A stretch of 34,980 bases of DNA from Intoshia linei (lineage: Eukaryota > Orthonectida > Rhopaluridae), in contig LWCA01000272.1 in assembly GCA_001642005.1 (NCBI GenBank), positions 1 to 34,980 on the forward strand, in the 5' to 3' direction. Shown here one piece after another: positions 1 to 34,980 of the stretch. Under the pieces are notes generated by a model, which was not told the DNA's origin, searched no databases, and was given only the letters and a program-made list of their open reading frames with translations. A program made the translations under genes and the position numbers. Positions within the stretch are counted from its first letter, which is position 1, and the number at the start of each line of letters is the position of its first letter.

Positions 1-421
1 TTGCGCGGCTAATTAGCGATTTGTGTGATAACTTTTCATATAAAGGTGGCAGAACAAAAATAATGGTATCAACAAGCGTACTTTTTAATTCCTTTTTTAA
101 TAGAAATGAAATATTCATGAAAATTAATGTTAATAGACCAAAAAATAATATCAATCGGAATGTCCTATGTTTATTGCACGCACTGTAATGTGGGAAGCAA
201 AGTTGCCAGAAAGTGTGTAATGTTACACATTTCTATAGATATGTGAAATGATAAAAAAACACATAATTTCACAAAAATTTAAAAAGTTTATTTTTTGTAA
301 AATGTGCGTAACTAAAGCGACCAGAATAAAATCTAACAACTTGTATTATCATTCAAAATATATCTAAACTATATTTGACATTTTTATACAAAATTTAATC
401 TCTTAAATTTAAATATTGAAT
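1..421. other. Leading stretch without recognised gene
   Basis: AT-rich DNA with no supported exon or RNA gene. It is probably the 5' flank or untranslated part of the hAT element that follows. I could not recognise a terminal inverted repeat or a target duplication. Confidence 0.4.
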
Positions 422-2282
422 ATGAGCCGAAAGTTAAATTTTTCTATGTTGCTGAATCAAAATGACCTGGAAATACGGAATGAAAAAATTTTTTGTTTAC
501 GTTGTAAAAATGTATACCCTATACACAAGGGAACATTAAAACGGCATGTTTTGACAGCCTTACATTCTAATGCACCAAATGTTTTACCTGTTTTAGATAC
601 CGATCAATCATCCAGTATTGTAAAAACTTTAAAAATAGAAATATGTATGGCTATTTATTCAGCTTGTCACACCTCTATCCTTTCAATCGAACATTTTACA
701 AAATTACTTAATACATTTAAAATATCAAATACACCTGTAAGATTAGGACGTACAAAGTGTTCGCAATTGATAAAAAATGTCATTTCTCCTGTTTTCTTTA
801 AAGAAATTGTCACAACATTAAAAGATCAACCATTATCCCTTATTGTCGATGAATCAACGGATATATTGTGCGAAAAATACTTGTGTGTTGTTATAAAATT
901 TTACTCCCCCAAATATTGTAGAATTGTTTCCTTTTTTTGGGATTAATTCATGTAACACGAACAGATGCTGATACACTATGTGGCTTACTTATTAAATTTT
1001 TCCAAGATTCTGGGATAAGTATCAAAAATTCTTATAAAGTGCATTTGCCATTCTTTAAACTTGTGTTGTTTGCGAGCATTTGATGATCTTCCAATTGATA
1101 TTGACAGTATAATACGAAACACATATAGCTTTTTACACCGCTCCAGTTTGAAAACCAGTGAATATGCTAATTTATTTAAATTAGTCGATAGAAGATATCC
1201 TTACAAATTTATCCCAATCAGCACAACAAGGTGGCTAGTACGCGGAAAAGCCATCAATTATAATTAATTATAAGTAATTATAACACAGTGGAGCACCTTA
1301 AAAGACTATTTTCAATTATGTATATCAAATCGTTCAAACTTGTCAGTTGCTGAGAATCTTGTAAGCTTATACAATCACGTGAATTTTGCGTATCTTTTAT
1401 TCCTTAAGCCGATTCTTTTTGAATTCAAATCCATGAACCGCAAGTTTCAATCTGAGAAAGCAGATCATTGCCGAATTTTGGTGGAGTTGAATAATTTTGT
1501 TAAATAGGTAATGTCCCGAATTATAAAAATAGAATATAATAATATGGCATTTGATTTTGAAAATGTGTTCAAAGACTTTGATGATGTAGATAGCGGTTAT
1601 GACTGTTACTGTTTTTTTGGAAATTTTTATCTGATAACAAACTTACAGAAAGCGAGATATTGGCCATTAAAAAGAAATGTAGATTATTTTTAATAACTCT
1701 AATCAAACAACTGTTTAAGAGGGTTTCTAAAAATGTTCGGATTTTAGACAAGATTCAATATGTTTCTCCATCCATTATCTTAAAGCACAACAAAAGAAAA
1801 TCTTTTTCAATGTTACCTCTAGAATTAGCCGAATTTACAAAATTAGGTATCATTGAAAGTCAATGGAGAAGTATAATTAATATAAATTGGTGTGATAAGT
1901 TGAAAACGGATAGGCTACCAGACGGTTCTACTTTTTTGACGATGGTTTTAACTTATAGGGATTCTGAAGGTGTCTTAGAATTTAAAGAGTTGACACTTTT
2001 TGCACTTAAAGTGTATTGCATCCCAATAAGTAATAATAAGCTGTAATAGAAAGAGTTTTTTCTGATCTAAATAATGTCCAAACCAAGCAAAGAAACAGAA
2101 TGAAAAAGAAAATGTTAAGCTCAATTCTGACTATCCAAAGCACGTTTCAAACTACTGGTTTGTGTTATGACTGCTTTGTTCCACCTAAAGAAATGATGAA
2201 TTACAATTCAAATATATACAATATTTTGGATAAATCAAATGAAAGTGCAGAATCTGATGACGATTCACATTTAATATTATAA
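422..2282 (+). pseudogene. Decayed hAT transposase with BED-type zinc finger (ZBED5/FAM200-like)
   Basis: The first open piece (ATG 422 to about 946) has a CxxC...H zinc finger near its start (CLRC, then LKRHV) and the catalytic-core segment SLIVDESTDI typical of hAT transposases. The reading then moves between frames. A one-base shift in a T-run near 935 continues as GLIHVTRTDADTL. A second shift near 1055 continues as LRAFDDLPIDID and ISTTRWL (1061-1267). A stop near 1264 interrupts the frame before QWSTLKDYF. Further pieces lie at 1660-2046. After another shift near 2040, the hAT C-terminal dimerisation motif ERVFSDLNNVQTKQRN is seen (about 2046-2095) and ends at 2282. With at least three frameshifts or stops this cannot encode an active transposase. 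Domain order and motifs identify the hAT superfamily; terminal repeats were not found. Confidence 0.85.
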
Positions 2283-5015: not shown

Positions 5016-8000
5016 ATGCAAATTTCTACTTTGGATGACGTTACCTGTGTTCCAGGTAAAATGGTATTTAAACGTATTAATTACTAAAAAAGGTCAAATT
5101 TTAATTGAAAATGGACCAAATTGTGTACTTGGAGAAGGCGTTTATTCTAGAAATGATAAAATAATTAGCTCCATGGCTGGGAAAATATCTATATCTAATG
5201 TCAATCAAAAAGTAATTTTTTTTATTATGTAGTTTATTATTAAACGAATATTCCATATTTTTATATAAGAGTAGTTATCCGCTTTTTTATCGTAGTCTGA
5301 AAAATTTGAATTTTAAACTATCGGAATGTTAAATGTTACATTCTTAATTTAAAAATCATCATTTAATTCTTAGTAAGGATTCCTTACTTATATAAAGTGC
5401 TCTGTTTGTCTGTGTGTGTTTATCATTTATTTCAATAACTACCAGTCAGAATTTTATAAAGTATACATTTCTATTACGTTTTTTTCCGGGTGAAAGTAAA
5501 ATAAATTTCAACCTCCGAAATTCACATCTTAACTGTCAAAAACATTTATTTTCCTTTTTTTTAAAAATCAAACGAGTTCTAGAATTTAAAAAAATATATC
5601 TCTAGGTCCAAAACCACAAATTACTTTTTTTTAAAATAAAAAGAGCCCTAGAATTTAAAAAAATACAGGTGGTACAGTTGTATCCTGTTAACACCTAAAA
5701 AAAATTTCAATCGGAATAAGTGACGACTTCACGGTCAAAAAAGCATTTTAGTATTCATATATTTTTTTCCAAAATATTTTATTAAAACAAAAAATCTGAA
5801 ATAATTAACGGTCCGAAAATTAAAAAAAAAAATATTCTTATAGAGCTTATTTCAGTTGATATAAATAAAAAAGTTCAACCCAAAAATCTAAGCATTCCCG
5901 GTGAAAAATAATTTTTAATATATTATCAACCAATATTTTTCAAATATTTCGAATTAAAATAAAAATGAAGTGTAAATATTGATCCTACAATTTCAAAAAA
6001 AATGTGCATTGAACGTCTACACATTTCCAATTATAATAAAAATCTATATAATTCATTCCTTCGGAATTTTTTTTCATTGCTACGCAATTTTTCATACTCA
6101 TTACTTATTTTCAAAAATTTAACGAAATTTATTTTAAAACTACATTAATTTGCTGTACAGCAATTAAAAGTACAACTTTGTTATTATCATTTTTGTATTT
6201 ATTACAATGCTTGGCAATTTCTGTAAAATTCATCTGAAATGTTTTTAAACTGCTGCTTTCCTTAATTATTGATACAAAATTAATATTTTTTACTCATCGA
6301 AAGAAGATAGTGAATATACCAGGTTTATTTACAATTTTATTTTTTATGGAATTGAATATTTGCTATTTTGACAAATTTTAGGATTTATTATTTTTGAGAT
6401 TATACACTCATTACCTTTAATAAATTAAATAAATGGGATCACAAAATTGTTTTTAAAATTCTCTACAAAAATGCTAACCGAATAAAATTAAGTGGGAATT
6501 ATTCATTTTAAATTAAAAGCTAATGTGAAATTCAAGTTTAGGAATGACTTCTTTAAATGATTGTTAATAATGAGTAGCAATTTTAATTAAGATTTTATTA
6601 TTGTATTTATTTTTTTGGTAGAATTAGATAAATAATAAATAATTAAAACAATCTACATTTATTACGAAGAATACTGAATAAGCGATGTTTTTCTTTTCCA
6701 AGTTATTCAAACTCACCTAATGGATCAAAAATGAGAAGAAAAATTTTATTTGTTTCCAAAAAACTAAATATGAATATCATTGATGAAATACATGTATTAA
6801 AAATGCTATTCACTATTACCACTGCTTTAAAGTTTAAAGGAGTGGTTCCCAAATCTGTTACACCATAATACCGGTCATTTCACATTAGCTTTTAATTTGA
6901 AGTGAATTATTCCCACTTACTTTTATTTTGTTAACATTGTGTAAATAATTTTGTGATGCCATTTTTTTAATTAACATTTAACATTTAGGGAGAATAAGTG
7001 TATAATCTTAAAAATAAAGTAAAAAAGGTGCAATCCTAAAAATTGTCATAAATAAGTCAAATTCCAGAAAAAATAAAATTGCAAATAAACCTGTGTAGAA
7101 TTGCTTCTCTTGTATGTTTAATTACGTTGAGATAATTATCCTTATCTCATTACAACCGGTATTTTCTTTTTTAATAATTGGACGGTATACATTCAGTTTC
7201 TACTTTCGATAAGTAAAAAATAATGTATGTCAATAATTAACGAACTCAGCACTTTAAAAACATATTTCGGGTAAATTTTGCCAACATTGAAATAAATATA
7301 AAAATGATAATAACAAAGTTATAGTTCAAGTCATTTTTAACGGAAGGAATGAATTTATGAGATTTACACCCACATATCTTTATCGGAAGCTTGTAAACGT
7401 TCAATGTACATTTTTTTAAAATTGTAGATGAATATTTACATTTGTGAATACGTTTTAAATGTGTTTGTTTTTTTTTAAATTGTTAATATTTTAATTTAAT
7501 TTTTCTCACCTAAGTACTGTCTACCCAACGCCACGTACATTTAAAAAATATATCTGGAATCGTCTGCCCTTGTCACACGTAGTTACGTTTGTACCGAGTT
7601 GAATTTACCTTAATCTCGCCTTAGATAATAATTTTGTTTTAAAATTACAATGTTTAATTAAATGTGTACCTTATTTATTACAATTGCTAATTTGTTAATT
7701 ATAATTATTTTAGATTAAAATTGATATAAAAAATAAAAATAAAAGTTTTGTTATTCCAAAGATTGATTCTATTGTGGTTGCTCGAGTATTTTTATAAATT
7801 ATATTTTTTATTTTAATTTTTGGTACGTTTTCTGAAACTTGTACTAAAAATAATCATTTTCAAATTGATAAGATAACATAATTGTTGAACCCTGTTTTAA
7901 CCACACTTTAATTTAAGTATCATTTTACTGGTTCGTTAAAATACATTTACATTTTCACCGGTCTGGAAGAGATTAAAGGTTGGAAAACTTCCATCTATTC

Positions 8001-9636
8001 CTAATAATTCGATATAATTCACGGGACCATATGAAAATGGCAGCCAGTTTTTATAATTTTCAAAGTAAATTAAAACTATTTATTTTTTATATAAAATTTA
8101 TAAATATTATTACTCAAACCTAGGTAAATAGATTGGGTTAATATAAAAGGAAATTTTTAAGTGAATGAGAATACAAAAAAAATAAATATGATAAATTTTT
8201 ATTATGTCTCAAATGTTAAATAAATAAATTATTTTAACTTTTTAAGTCTTACATATTTAATATTATAAATTTTTAGGTGGACAAAGTCGAAAAAATACGA
8301 TGTACTTGTACTATTTTTAGAGTAGATGAAATTCAAACTAGTTTATTTTACGGTGTTATAAAGTAATTTTTTTATTATTATAATATTTACAACTACATAC
8401 ACGTATACACTTTATGTACGCTTTTATTTTATTTATTGTTAAATTATAGGACAGAGGTCGTAAAACAGAACCACATGGTCTGAAAAATATTTATTTGATT
8501 GGGGTCCATTTTATAAAAATTATAATTCATGTTATTATAGAGGCCGCTGATTTAGAAATTTATGAATTATGGTGGAATGGGGTGACAGGGGCGTTAGTTT
8601 AAAAAGGTTGAGATCCCTGAACTAATGAGTAACACTAAAAAGCTTATGAATCCTTAGTTAAGAGCAATCAAGTAATTTAGTTTTTAATCTATTCATTAAT
8701 GACCTTTCCTAAGTTAGTTATTAACGCCAAAGAGTATTATTTTAACCAATCTCCACTTTTATTTAAATAAAAAAAACGCCACCAGGGCGGAATCGAACCG
8801 CTGCGAATCCAATCACCTACGGTTTTGAAGACCGCACTCAAGACCACTCAAGCTCATGGCGGCAATATTTTTATATATTATTATTATATATATAAAATAT
8901 TGATTTAGTCGTGACGATGTTCGTAAAACTGAAAAAGACAAAATTCAAATGTATAATTGCTTTAGACCCGGTGATATTATTATGGCTAAAGTTGTAAGTT
9001 TATTTGTTCTTTATTTATTACCACGTTTACAAAATAAAATATATTCGACCAGTGGGTTTCGTTTAATTTCACTTTTTTATTGGCCCATTATTTATATTAC
9101 ATTTATGAATGAGTGTTTTTTTAAATCCAAATTATTTTTACTAAAAATCAAAATTTACCAACCCTAAAATGAAAAAATCAGTTTTAGGGTTCGTAAGACT
9201 GAATTTTTGCCTAAAAACTTGGTAAAAGTGGCTTTTTCCCTTAGCGGTTTGTAAAAATAGTTGTGTTAAAAATATTCTCTATATGCATCATGATTAAAAT
9301 AATAAATGGATAACTGAATATACAAATAATGAATATTTTACTATTTTTATACTTTCATTTTGAACAATTAATGTATTACATTAGGTATCTTTGGGAGAGG
9401 CGAACATGTATTGGCTTGCGACAAATTCTAATGAATTAGGAGTGATATTAGCTAAAAGTAAAGCAGGTAAACTAAAAAACCCAAAAATATGACATCTTAA
9501 ATTTTTAACAGGTCATCAAATGATACCAATAAGCTGGCAAGAAATGCAATGTTTAGAAACATTTGATAAAGAATTTAGAAAAACTGCAAAGATAACTGAA
9601 AAACAGTTAAAAGAATTGTACCTAGAACACCTGTAA
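5016..9636 (+). CDS. EXOSC1: Exosome complex component CSL4 (EXOSC1), 7 exons, 202 aa
   Basis: Exons: 5016-5055, 5093-5211, 7714-7785, 8277-8362, 8909-8993, 9385-9466, 9512-9636. Phases agree at every junction, giving 203 codons (human protein: 195 aa). Residues 11-14 are CVPG and about 32-44 are VYSRNDKIISSMA, matching the CSL4 N-terminal domain. The S1 RNA-binding domain spans roughly residues 66-140, with DDVRKTEKDKIQMY and CFRPGDIIMAKV. The C-terminal part has ELGVILAKSKAGHQMIPISW and FRKTA. CSL4 is one of the cap subunits (S1/KH ring) of the RNA exosome, which helps channel RNA to the 3'-5' exonuclease in nucleus and cytoplasm (established knowledge). Intron 1 is 37 nt with a TACTAA-like branch site; intron 6 is 45 nt; introns 2-5 are 391-2502 nt and carry repeats and a tRNA gene. 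The start ATG is the first that fits the conserved N-terminus. Confidence 0.93.
5381..5970. repeat. Interspersed repeat family, copy 1 (in EXOSC1 intron 2)
   Basis: It starts TCCTTACTTATATAAAG followed by a TGTCTGTGTGTG tract, then a conserved block around 5430-5530. Related copies start at 12161 and 19101. Directly in front lies AGTAAGGA, which makes an imperfect palindrome with the element start (5372-5388), as if two ends met head to head. No coding capacity. Confidence 0.6.
5971..7440. repeat. Long imperfect inverted repeat (arms about 560 bp)
   Basis: The left arm (about 5971-6531) and right arm (about 6877-7440) are imperfect reverse complements. Examples: TGCATTGAACGT at 6004 against ACGTTCAATGTACA near 7398; GCTAATGTGAAAT near 6519 against ATTTCACATTAGC near 6877; and CTTTGTTATTATCATTTTT near 6176 against its complement near 7300. 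The roughly 345-bp centre is unique. It lies in EXOSC1 intron 2, so the pre-mRNA could fold into a long hairpin. Arm similarity was judged by eye. Confidence 0.7.
8440..8619. repeat. Probable hAT-type element remnant
   Basis: It is GC-richer than its surroundings and ends in AAAAAGGTTGAGATCCCTG, a sequence of the style seen at hAT 3' termini. A matching left end and an 8-bp duplication were not found. It lies in EXOSC1 intron 4, just ahead of the tRNA. Confidence 0.35.
8769..8776 (-). terminator. RNA polymerase III terminator of the tRNA-Sec gene
   Basis: Eight T residues (read on the minus strand) follow the last base of the tRNA with no spacer, a strong Pol III terminator. Confidence 0.8.
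8777..8863 (-). tRNA. tRNA-Sec (anticodon TCA)
   Basis: On the minus strand this is exactly 87 nt, the usual animal tRNA-Sec length. It begins GCCGCCATG and ends CCTGGTGGC plus a G discriminator base, giving the long 9-bp acceptor stem of this tRNA (one G.T pair and one mismatch). The T-arm is a 4-bp stem with loop TTCGATT, i.e. the 9/4 architecture. The anticodon loop is CTTCAAA with anticodon TCA, flanked by a GCGGT/ACCGT stem. There is an extra arm of at least 4 bp between anticodon and T arms. This tRNA is charged with serine, converted to selenocysteine, and decodes UGA in selenoprotein mRNAs (established knowledge). It lies antisense inside EXOSC1 intron 4 (8363-8908). Intact arms and adjacent Pol III signals argue for a functional gene. 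Confidence 0.95.
8885..8900 (-). promoter_or_regulatory. TATA element upstream of tRNA-Sec
   Basis: A run of alternating T/A (TATATATATAAAATAT on the plus strand) lies 22-37 bp upstream of the tRNA 5' end. Animal tRNA-Sec genes use an upstream TATA box near -30 plus a proximal sequence element near -60 (established knowledge). The surroundings are AT-rich, so the motif alone is weak evidence. A PSE at the usual distance would fall inside EXOSC1 exon 5. Confidence 0.5.
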
Positions 9637-9644
9637 ATATATAT

Positions 9645-10554
9645 TTACAAAAACGTTTGTGGTATCAAATAGTCGGAAGGTGTATTGGATCGTCTTGGTT
9701 CATTTAGAAAGGAAGCCTCATCGATGAATTTGGCAAAATTATATTTTAATTGTTGAAATTTATCGATTTGTAACGCTAATTCACTTTTCAAATTATTATT
9801 AATTGTATGAATCTGCTCAATTTTGAATTCTAGTTGTCTAACTGTTTCATTTCGGACACTCAACTCTTTCCGCAATACAACTTCGACATGATTATCGACG
9901 GGAACATGTATTAACTCATCTTCAACTTTAACACTAACAACGTGTGATGATGTTTTTCTAGTAATATTGTTAATTTCTTCTTCATGTTCAAGTTTTAGTT
10001 TGTTAATTTGCTTTGTAATTGTTAAATTTTTCGAAATTTCATTTTCGATTAATTTGTTTCTTTCATTCATCGATGCTTTTTGTTTTTCAATTAATAATTT
10101 TTGCATTTTTTCATATTCAATACTAATATCCAACAAAAATTGTTCCATTCTTTTTTCAATAAGTTTCTTGTAAGTTTGCATAAAGTTCTAATCTCACAAT
10201 TATTTAATATGAGTAAAATATAACCTCCTTTTCCGTGTTAATTTTTTCAGTTTCAAATTTTATCTCGTTCCGGTACTTACTTTTCAAATTTTTAACATTT
10301 TCTTGAAATTTTTTTTCTCTTTCCATGTCCTCTTTTTTACTCAATTCAATTTTGTATTTTTCAATTTCTGTATTAAGAAATGTTTCATTTGCAATTTCAA
10401 TCTTTTTTTCAATTTCTTGGCCAATTTCTAAAAATTTTTTTTAAATTTTATGTTTCTTACTCAATATTTCGATATGGGTCACATTTTGAATTGTATCTAG
10501 CGAATCATTAGGTAATCCATCAGTAGTAGTTGGTTTTCCATGTCTGTTAGTCAT
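9645..10554 (-). CDS. Unidentified coiled-coil protein, 3 exons, about 279 aa
   Basis: Exons: 10461-10554, 10225-10427, 9645-10187. The introns are only 33 and 37 nt; both are GT-AG and keep frame. The first 30 residues are polar without obvious structure. Residues from about 32 onward are rich in E, K, I and N with heptad-like spacing (for example IGQEIEKKIEIANE), and this continues with one break near TSSHVVSVKVEDELIHVPVD to about residue 255. The C-terminal tail contains NEPRRSNTPSDY. No signal peptide or membrane segment. I do not recognise the family; a cytoskeletal, centrosomal or ciliary scaffold would fit such composition, but that is a guess. It converges on EXOSC1, the two stops being 8 bp apart, and begins 173 bp downstream of the AP2M1 stop on the same strand. 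Confidence 0.78.
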
Positions 10555-26580: not shown

Positions 26581-29500
26581 TTAATCGATTCTATACTTTA
26601 ATCTCTTTTCTATAAAACCGGAATTTTCGGCAACAATTTCTTCTTGTCTTTCAGGTGTAACAGGGCTAGATCTACGGTATTCCATATTAAATTCTCCCTT
26701 TCCTTGAGTTAATGACCTTAACTCACCCATATATCCGAACATTTGATTTAGAGGAACCTAAACAGAAAACTAGCAACATGATTAAATATTATTAAATATA
26801 TTATCAAAATATTGATTAATAGCATTGATTGTGTATAAACACAAGATAAGACAGATAAAAGCTGTAGGCCTACAGCGTAGTCACAGTTTTAACATACTGT
26901 TAATATGTGGTTTTTATCCATGGCAGATAATTTTATGAAAGTCGTAATTACAGTAAAGTCAAAACTTAATATAATTAAATAATTGAGATTTAAGTTAACT
27001 GATTCAGAAAAACCAAATAATGAACAATAAAAAACCTCTACTGTCAAGGTATTGTATCCACCATCAGCATCATGATTCACAACAATGGCAGATCGTTTCA
27101 TCAAACCCATTGAAACTCTATTTTGATATTCCATCGGAATTAAAACTTCTACTTTCATGATTGGTTCCAACAAAACCCAATCAGTTTCATCATAAGCTAA
27201 ATATATTATTTTCATATTACGCTAAATATTACATTCTTGCAAAGCAAACTCCATAGCCAACATGAAAGAATAATCGTCAGAATCGACGATATGATAATTT
27301 CCTAAATAAATAAATACCAATTAAATTGTTTTTTATTATTATAATTTATAAACAATAAAAATTAGAAGTACAATTTAAATTTATTTGTAATTTATAAAAC
27401 TTTGTAAAATATTGATCATAACGTATACCGTATCGGTATTACCGAGTGAGTACTACTGACACCAGTGCACTGTTCACTGCCGTGTTGTGTAAATATTTTA
27501 ACAACATCAGGGTCCTCGATAAAATTGGACAATTTTCAACATTCTATAAGTACAAATTTCACATAAAGTACTAAAAGTATTTCGAATTGAAAAAACACTG
27601 CTAACACATCCTTATCTGGAACCAAAAAATAATTTGGACCCAAAGGAATACATTAAAGAAACAAAATGATATAAAATAAACCATCTGTAATAACGCATTT
27701 TAACCCAGAAATCTTGTGTCCAGACAATAAACCAACTTGACAAGCTTTTTTGAAACCCTAAAAAAATATTATTTTTATCAAAATAATTACCTTATGAATG
27801 GCCGGAATAAATTTTTTGGGTAAATTTGTGCCAAATGTTTTATCTTCAAATTTTAATGTAGTATTCAATTCTGTAGGAAGTGGCTAGGTAATTGAATTAA
27901 TTTATCTGTTTATATAATAATCTAATTGCTAAATTTTAAATAATTATACAATTAAAAAAAAATTTTTTTCAATAGTAACCAAAAAGTAAAGGTAATGAAA
28001 ATTTTACTTCAAAATATCCAATAATTCTGGCATATTGGCCTCTACCACCAGTTTGTCGTTTATGCAAATAATCGAATCTAATAAAATTATAAAATCATAA
28101 TAATGAACAAAAACTTGTATTTTTCCGGTAACGTTTCACGGTACGCTACTCTGGGTTTACCCAAAATACATTTTGCATTATATTCTCGCTCGAGTCTCTA
28201 TATTTAGTATGTCAAATATTATATACGTCAATAAATTACCTGAGCGTAAATTTCAAGGTGTAATTCTCCCATTCCAGAAACAACAGTTTCCATACTTTCT
28301 AGATCATAGTTTACTCGGAATGTGGGATCTTCCTTAACAAAACGAGATATGCCTTTTGAAAAAGAGTCAATCATTTTCTTTTCAGTTGGTTTAATAGACA
28401 TTGAAACTACTGGTTCAGGTACAAACATTGATTCCTTGAATTTTGAAATATTAATAAAATACTTGCCATAAACTAATAGCATACCATAGTTAAATGAGAA
28501 ATATCTTTGGAAGTAAATGTGTCGCCACTTTTGCAAGAAATTCCCATAAATGCACAAATATCACCGGAATGAGCTTCTTCAATGTCCTACACACTCATAA
28601 AATATAAAATGATAGTTCTGAAACACGATTTCGAATCGAATTTGACTCAAAATAAAATAGTTTTATTCGTACACGTTATGATGGTAGTGTAGATTCAGAA
28701 GTAATCCGGGGTAGGATATATTTATTATTTCTCGCTGAGTACACATACCAATTTATGAGCGCACCGATTGAGAAACATTACTCTACATCAGTGTTTCCCA
28801 ACCGTGGGGCCAGGCCCCACTGGTGGGTCATGACGAAATTTTTGGTAGGACATTGGAAATTTGGTGGATCCTGGGAAATATTACAAATGTGTAGGATTAT
28901 GAAACTTTAGATTAATTTATTGCAAAATGCCAAATTTGCAAATTTACAAAATTATCCGATTTTAACAACTTTTGCTAGGATTGCTTTGTTGCCATTTCCA
29001 TCCTCTTATTTAGCAGAATGCGGGTTTAGTGCAGTTTTAGACTTACTGACAAAAAAAATAAATAGACTACAAATTTCAAAATGGGGAGATTTACGATTAA
29101 AGCTTACAACATTAATACCTAATATTAATAAACTCTGTCAGAATGGTCATGCTCAATCGTCTTATTAATTCTAAAAAATAAATACATTATTATTGCTTTT
29201 ATCATTATTTTATTATAATTCGCTCGAATTTTTTTTCAGTGGGGCCTAGCATAAAAAAGGTTAGGCAACACTGCTCTACACGGTTGTTTCTGTTATCATA
29301 AATCCAGTCGAGTTACTCGGCCCAATGTAGAAATGTAAAATCTGTTGTGATTTGATTTACACTAAAAATACAAAAAATAAAAATTTAAAAATAGTTTTCA
29401 TTCAAAAAATGTTCCAGCAATTACAACTGGTCCATTGTACAATATACATCCCTCATTTATTTGGTATGATAAAGCACTCATTTCTTTGTATATAAATGAT

Positions 29501-34336: not shown

Positions 34337-34980
34337 TTAATATTTTGTTGAACCGCCATTAGCACTAATGAGACCATTTATTCTTCTAGGCATCCCAATA
34401 ATCAATTCTTTTAATAATTCTTGTATTCTTGGAGAATGGTTCCAAACCTTGTATAATGGATCAATCAATTATGTTCTTGTATTAATTTCTATTTTATGAA
34501 CTTCATCCTTCAGAATTGACCAAATATTTTCAATTGGGTTCATATCAGGATAATTTCCTGGCCATTTCAACAGAGTAATACCCTTATTTTCAAAGAACGT
34601 CATTATAGACTTTGATTTGTGACATGGTGCAGAATCTTGTTGAAATGTGTAATCAGTATTGTCAAACAAATGGGGAATTTCATTTAGGAATAATTCCATC
34701 ACATTCTTGTACACTTTTTGGTTCATTTTTCCCTTAATTATCTGCAATTTGCTCATACCTTTTACGGGTATAGCACCCTAGACCATCACTTTCGCTGGAA
34801 ATTTTACAGTTTGTCTTACACAATCTGATCTTGAGAATCACTGGATTTTCTCCGAACTCGAAGGAGGGGTTTTCGAATTTTTTTGTATGATTTGTATCCT
34901 GCATCTACAAATCTACGGTTCACTGTTCTTCTTGATAAATTAATATTTTTGATTTTAAGTTTAGATACGATTTCATTGCA
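34337..34980 (-). pseudogene. Decayed Tc1/mariner transposase, C-terminal part, cut by window end
   Basis: On the minus strand the frame ends with GGSTKY at 34337, the usual C-terminus of Tc1-type transposases. Upstream it shows NPIENIW with the third catalytic acidic residue, QQDSAPCH with the second, and VKGMSKLQIIKG. An N-terminal helix-turn-helix piece, LSRRTVNRRFVDAGY, is at about 34880-34925. In-frame stops interrupt it near 34472 (TAA), near 34780 (TAG in place of the Trp of the conserved VMVWG) and near 34824, so it is inactive. The N-terminus lies beyond the window. Confidence 0.85.

What the first reader, a model, noticed from the sequence alone, without database searches (positions are those of the whole stretch)
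8777..8863. Selenocysteine tRNA nested antisense in an exosome-gene intron
A complete 87-nt tRNA-Sec with an immediate Pol III T-run lies on the opposite strand in EXOSC1 intron 4. If it uses the usual upstream promoter, its PSE position (about -50 to -66, roughly 8911-8929) falls inside EXOSC1 exon 5, so one stretch would be both coding and Pol III promoter. Polymerases II and III would transcribe the same DNA in opposite directions. It also shows that this AT-rich, fast-evolving genome probably keeps selenoprotein synthesis.
Basis: partly seen in the sequence, partly recalled or inferred. Interest (0 to 1): 0.75.

Follow-up and report, generated by a model that had tools for sequence, protein, structure and literature searches.

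The report
Selenocysteine tRNA inside an exosome-gene intron
A tiny parasitic worm carries a sound selenocysteine tRNA gene backwards inside an intron of an exosome gene and still has most of the genes needed to use it, but the suggested overlap of its promoter with a coding exon finds no support in the sequence.

Summary
8777-8863 (-) is a complete tRNA-Sec (ARAGORN; Rfam RF01852, 70.3 bits), the only hit above cut-off in the 34.65-Mb assembly. It lies antisense in intron 4 (8363-8908) of an intact seven-exon EXOSC1/CSL4 gene, whose protein is 100% identical to a record of the orthonectid Intoshia linei.

The machinery claim is supported: pieces of SepSecS, EEFSEC and SEPHS2, with in-frame TGA at the Sec site of SEPHS2 and two GPx genes. 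PSTK and SECIS were not found; SBP2 was not sought.

The exon-as-promoter claim is not supported. This genome's own element, ATAAATTATG, lies within -77 to -60 of 2 of 2 U6, 5 of 6 U1, RNase P and MRP genes. At that place (8925-8940, exon 5) tRNA-Sec matches GAATAAATTATG at 5 of 12 bases at best. Present instead: a TATA-like box at -31 inside the 45-nt intronic spacer, and a consensus B box; the A box is weak. TATA plus B box is the likeliest driver. A diverged PSE is not excluded: 3 of 3 U2 genes also lack the motif. An ordinary gene with a mildly unusual promoter.

The parts
8777..8863 (-). tRNA-Sec gene, 87 nt, anticodon TCA
   Evidence: ARAGORN; RF01852 70.3 bits; stems
8769..8776 (-). run of eight T directly after the tRNA, likely Pol III terminator
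   Evidence: sequence; 21 of 21 ordinary tRNA genes examined also have at least five T there
8789..8799 (-). B box GGTTCGATTCC
   Evidence: 57 genome matches against 2 for the reversed control pattern; not all are tRNA genes
8844..8854 (-). A-box-like AGCTTGAGTGG, weak
   Evidence: score 5.8 against 10.3-16.3 in 21 ordinary tRNA genes; 1.6% of 5000 random stretches do as well
8885..8894 (-). TATA-like run TATATATATA, starts at -31
   Evidence: 8 of 8 consensus positions; U6 has TATATAAA at -28; 115 of 4000 random places reach 8
8925..8940 (-). place where a PSE like that of U6, RNase P and MRP would lie (-77..-62), inside exon 5; no PSE-like sequence found
5016..5055 (+). EXOSC1 exon 1 (coding part)
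5093..5211 (+). EXOSC1 exon 2
7714..7785 (+). EXOSC1 exon 3
8277..8362 (+). EXOSC1 exon 4
8363..8908 (+). EXOSC1 intron 4, host of the tRNA gene
   Evidence: GT...AG
8909..8993 (+). EXOSC1 exon 5
9385..9466 (+). EXOSC1 exon 6
9512..9636 (+). EXOSC1 exon 7 (coding part) with stop codon
   Evidence: whole protein 100% identical to P0001

Best explanation
A single-copy, intact tRNA-Sec gene of the orthonectid Intoshia linei, nested antisense in intron 4 of EXOSC1. Pol III most likely starts on a TATA-like box in the 45-nt spacer before exon 5, helped by the internal B box (TFIIIC to TFIIIB), reads 87 nt and stops in the T-run inside the intron, so neither promoter nor transcript needs exon sequence. 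The tRNA then serves SEPHS2, GPx and perhaps other selenoproteins through SepSecS and EEFSEC. Shown: gene, location, machinery pieces, absence of the genome's PSE motif at its usual place, presence of TATA-like and B boxes. Inferred: expression, TFIIIC use, charging and decoding.
For: gene, single hit above cut-off, stems; host gene intact, species; SepSecS; EEFSEC; SEPHS2 with LKGUGCKVPQ; GPx with VNVASEUGLT and VNVASEUSLT; own PSE motif in 2 of 2 U6 and 5 of 6 U1 genes, which were found by Rfam without regard to it; RNase P, MRP, found through it; absent at its place before tRNA-Sec (54, 63); 46 (TATA-like at -31; 17 of 21 ordinary tRNA genes score 7 or 8 against 1175 of 4000 random places); 39 (B box).
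Against: The A box is poor, so a plain type-2 promoter is not clean. In AT-rich DNA a TATA run is cheap. 3 of 3 U2 genes also lack the PSE motif, so missing the motif does not prove missing SNAPc. PSTK gave 0 hits, AIRS 0 hits; both SEPHS2 pieces are below the selD cut-off; the EEFSEC piece is barely above its own (27.3 and 31.8 against 27). No SECIS was found beside GPx or SEPHS2. No expression data. Selenocysteine tRNA is listed among type-3 genes in PMC7279448 (passages).
Confidence: 0.6

Rival explanations
1. The gene keeps the classical external promoter: a diverged PSE, bound by SNAPc, lies at about -77 to -50, inside exon 5, so the codons there double as promoter.
For: Selenocysteine tRNA is listed as a type-3 gene (PMC7279448 passages; PMC4671959 abstract); a TATA-like box stands at the right distance; A box weak; U2 genes, 3 of 3, lack the motif although they are snRNA genes.
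Against: No match to the genome's PSE at that place: at most 5 of 12, score -7.9 against 14.2-21.4. Both U6 genes, RNase P and MRP have GAATAAATTATG in full, though the last two were found through the motif. Exon 5 codes residues that match recalled human EXOSC1 well, which leaves little freedom.
Confidence: 0.25
2. A plain type-2 tRNA promoter (A and B boxes), as for any other tRNA gene, the upstream TATA-like box being the general habit of this genome.
For: Consensus B box; TATA-like matches at -40 to -19 are more frequent before ordinary tRNA genes here than at random places.
Against: A box scores 5.8 against 10.3-16.3.
Confidence: 0.12
3. A relic or silent copy; a working tRNA-Sec lies in the unassembled part or Sec is no longer used.
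For: No expression data; no PSTK or SECIS found; one mismatched acceptor pair.
Against: Otherwise intact stems, immediate T-run, only hit above cut-off, TGA kept at the Sec site of SEPHS2 and two GPx genes.
Confidence: 0.03

Closest known systems
Eukaryotic tRNA-Sec genes (Rfam RF01852)
   Same: 87 nt, 9-bp acceptor, 6-bp D stem, 4-bp T stem, UCA anticodon, G at the 3' end, T-run
   Different: no PSE of the genome's own kind upstream; selenocysteine tRNA is listed among genes with PSE and TATA (PMC7279448 passages)
Human tRNA-Sec2 copy in a PARVB intron
   Same: tRNA-Sec in an intron of a protein gene (PMC5330540 passages)
   Different: that copy is a second one and a likely pseudogene; here it is the only one found
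Yeast SNR6-type promoter (TATA plus B box; recalled, no call)
   Same: TATA-like box upstream and a B box as the two recognisable elements
   Different: B box is inside the gene here; U6 of this genome has a PSE-like motif

Membership tests
Eukaryotic tRNA-Sec (RF01852) | family score above gathering cut-off, UCA anticodon | tested here: met
   70.3 against 47 bits; TCA
Eukaryotic tRNA-Sec (RF01852) | 9-bp acceptor, 4-bp T stem, 6-bp D stem | tested here: met
   8 of 9, 4 of 4, 6 of 6 pairs
Eukaryotic tRNA-Sec (RF01852) | Sec machinery in the same genome | tested here: inconclusive
   mostly met: SepSecS, EEFSEC, SEPHS2 pieces, Sec-type GPx; PSTK 0 hits, SBP2 not sought, SECIS not found
Eukaryotic tRNA-Sec (RF01852) | transcribed and charged | not testable with these tools
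   no reads available
Type-3 Pol III promoter | PSE of the genome's own kind at about -77 to -60 | tested here: not met
   caveat: 3 of 3 U2 genes lack it too
Type-3 Pol III promoter | TATA box near -30 | tested here: met
   not specific in this AT-rich genome
Type-2 Pol III promoter | consensus B box | tested here: met
   GGTTCGATTCC
Type-2 Pol III promoter | A box like that of other tRNA genes | tested here: inconclusive
   5.8 against 10.3-16.3, yet only 1.6% of random stretches reach it

The most novel reading that the evidence does not exclude
In this orthonectid the tRNA-Sec gene has left the SNAPc/PSE promoter class that U6, RNase P and MRP of the same genome keep, and runs on a TATA box plus internal B box packed into a 45-nt intronic spacer and the gene itself: a promoter-class switch of tRNA-Sec in an animal.
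Probability: 0.4. Interest if true: 0.5.

Novelty: new member of a known kind. Interest (0 to 1): 0.33.

Why it matters
It indicates that one of the most reduced animals keeps selenocysteine, whereas some insects (PMC2500217, abstract in the listing) and Astigmata (mites; PMC5330540, passage) have lost it. I saw no earlier report for an orthonectid, but the search was limited: the listings show none and are capped, and 'selen' does not occur in the main text of two orthonectid papers and one dicyemid paper that I searched; the other papers among the 35 that name Intoshia linei were not opened. If the promoter reading is right, the textbook external promoter of tRNA-Sec is not fixed in animals, which a simple transcription assay could test.

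Tried and rejected
PSE search upstream of tRNA-Sec on both strands up to 300 nt: best forward 5.0, best reverse 1.3, against 15.4-22.0 in the seven training genes. A pattern of PSE plus TATA gave 11 places against 7 for the reversed control, so it is noisy by itself; of the 9 places outside U6, 2 were RNase P and MRP. A motif shared in place by tRNA-Sec and the snRNA genes was not found: the best 14-base windows differ at 4 bases and are AT-rich. PF00586 (AIRS) gave 0 hits, but the full-length selD model found SEPHS2 in two pieces, both below its curated cut-off, with the Sec context read by eye. PSTK by PF08433: 0 hits, 2 candidates scored. SECIS by Rfam and by a home-made scan: none; the scan was strict (7 of 60 control stretches gave a hit) and was not tested on a known SECIS. 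Synonymous-site comparison of exon 5 was impossible: the assembly has no relatives here. Literature searches on tRNA-Sec promoters outside vertebrates: I saw no direct test of an invertebrate tRNA-Sec promoter in the listings, which are capped. Of the papers, I saw passages of PMC5330540, PMC9841428, PMC7279448, PMC6543705 and PMC12249979 and a term count of PMC6736024; all others only as listings with the start of the abstract.

Rows left out: of six U1 hits, two (L019, L020) are below the U1 cut-off; L019 was used for the PSE matrix, L020 (score 10.7) was not; the U2 genes were scored but not used to build it. RNase P and MRP entered it after being found with part of the same motif, so they are not independent. 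tRNA comparison: 57 B-box places, 56 fetched besides the window's own; 19 of the 56 hold an ordinary tRNA gene by ARAGORN, and two more tRNA genes (L003, found otherwise, and a second one in L076) make 21; the other 37 are, by eye, a repeat family and chance. The B box was the selection criterion, so its presence in the 19 is by construction.

Full report
The tRNA. ARAGORN finds one tRNA in the window, tRNA-Sec at 8777-8863 on the minus strand. Rfam agrees at 70.3 bits, E 1.3e-12, full length. All five arms form, with one U:C mismatch in the 9-pair acceptor stem, and eight T follow directly. In the assembly that holds the window (34.65 Mb, 1319 contigs) it is the only listed hit above the family cut-off; three weaker hits are tRNA-Ser genes (53 of 648 first-look candidates were scored). 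Plain energy folding of the bare strand prefers another pairing of the anticodon and T half, with a modest z-score of -2.23.

The host gene. A tblastn with recalled human EXOSC1 and splice-site reading gave seven exons, 5016-9636, with an open frame of 202 codons and a stop. The protein is identical over its length to 'Exosome complex component csl4 [Intoshia linei]' on a contig of 34,980 bases (P0001), which names the organism; P0001 matches EXOSC1, ECR1_N and RRP4_S1 in Pfam. The tRNA gene lies in the fourth intron, 8363-8908, antisense, 45 nt from exon 5 and 414 nt from exon 4.

The Sec system. In the same assembly SepSecS matches in five pieces on one contig; three of the five contain stop codons, which on reading the frames appear to lie in short introns (by eye). 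The fourth EEFSEC domain matches barely above its cut-off inside a 203-residue open frame. SEPHS2 matches in two pieces that fall below the selD cut-off; one carries LKGUGCKVPQ, U being an in-frame TGA, and also a TAA that I did not place. Two neighbouring GPx genes, four pieces above cut-off, carry TGA where the catalytic Sec stands (VNVASEUGLT, VNVASEUSLT); three of these pieces also hold TAG or TAA, again not placed. That these are the usual Sec contexts is recalled knowledge. PSTK was not found, SBP2 was not sought, and no SECIS was seen. I read this as retained Sec decoding, with those gaps.

The promoter question. I took the genome's own snRNA-type genes as the yardstick. Both U6 genes have GAATAAATTATG at -76 to -65. 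Of six U1 hits (four above the U1 cut-off), five have ATAAATTATG, three of them the full GAATAAATTATG; the sixth, L020, has a decayed form. The three U2 genes do not have it. A genome search for ATAAATTATG followed by TATATAAA found both U6 genes again, RNase P and MRP, each with GAATAAATTATG 34-36 nt before TATATAAA, but the reversed control pattern gave 7 places against 11. With a matrix of nine sites, left-out scores are 14.2 to 21.4; tRNA-Sec reaches -7.9 for starts -95 to -56 and 3.7 for starts -110 to -51, a value that 13% of random window stretches reach; ordinary tRNA genes range from -5.1 to 8.7. Directly counted, no start between -79 and -68 has more than 5 of 12 matches.

What is there. 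A run TATATATATA starts at -31, within the intronic spacer (exon 5 begins at -46). It matches the TATA consensus at all 8 positions, which 115 of 4000 random places do; 17 of 21 ordinary tRNA genes score 7 or 8 somewhere in -40 to -19, against 1175 of 4000 random places, so TATA-like boxes there are a habit of this genome and not a mark of type 3. The B box is GGTTCGATTCC. The A box is weak: 5.8 against 10.3-16.3 in 21 ordinary tRNA genes, though better than 98% of random stretches.

Reading. The simplest account is TATA plus B box, with the whole unit inside the intron. I recall, without a call, that the frog tRNA-Sec promoter was described as combining PSE, TATA and an internal B box; this gene would then have kept two of three. 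The main doubt is that U2 genes of this genome lack the PSE motif too, so SNAPc may accept other sequences. Transcription of both strands by Pol II and Pol III is implied by the layout but not shown.

Verdict. A real, probably working tRNA-Sec in an unusual animal; nesting in an intron is not new (a human copy lies in a PARVB intron, PMC5330540 passages). The coding-exon promoter is not supported. Interest is modest; the promoter-class switch is worth one experiment.

Noticed in passing
L036 (G000:C1003:27867-27914, -): GAATAAATTATG and TTTGTATATAAA, as before U6, stand upstream of a stretch of about 85 nt (by eye) ending in TTTT, with no Rfam match at E 0.5: a possible unnamed type-3 Pol III RNA.
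   Followed up: partly
L012, L013, L014: The three U2 genes lack the PSE motif that U6 and most U1 genes share in this genome.
   Followed up: partly
window 9636-9647: EXOSC1 and a convergent ORF that looks coiled-coil (9645-10187, -, no Pfam match) have their stop codons eight bases apart.
   Followed up: no
L095 4746-7914: Two GPx genes with in-frame TGA at the Sec site lie in opposite orientation about 2.5 kb apart.
   Followed up: partly
L041, L042, L044, L046, L048, L049 and others: Many B-box pattern hits belong to one dispersed repeat with a sequence like gaagtggcgacgggcttgcta before GGTTCGATTCC; not a tRNA by ARAGORN.
   Followed up: no
window 413-2282, 28911-29168 and 34469-34777: ORFs that look like hAT and Tc1 transposase pieces (labels recalled, ORFs).
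   Followed up: no
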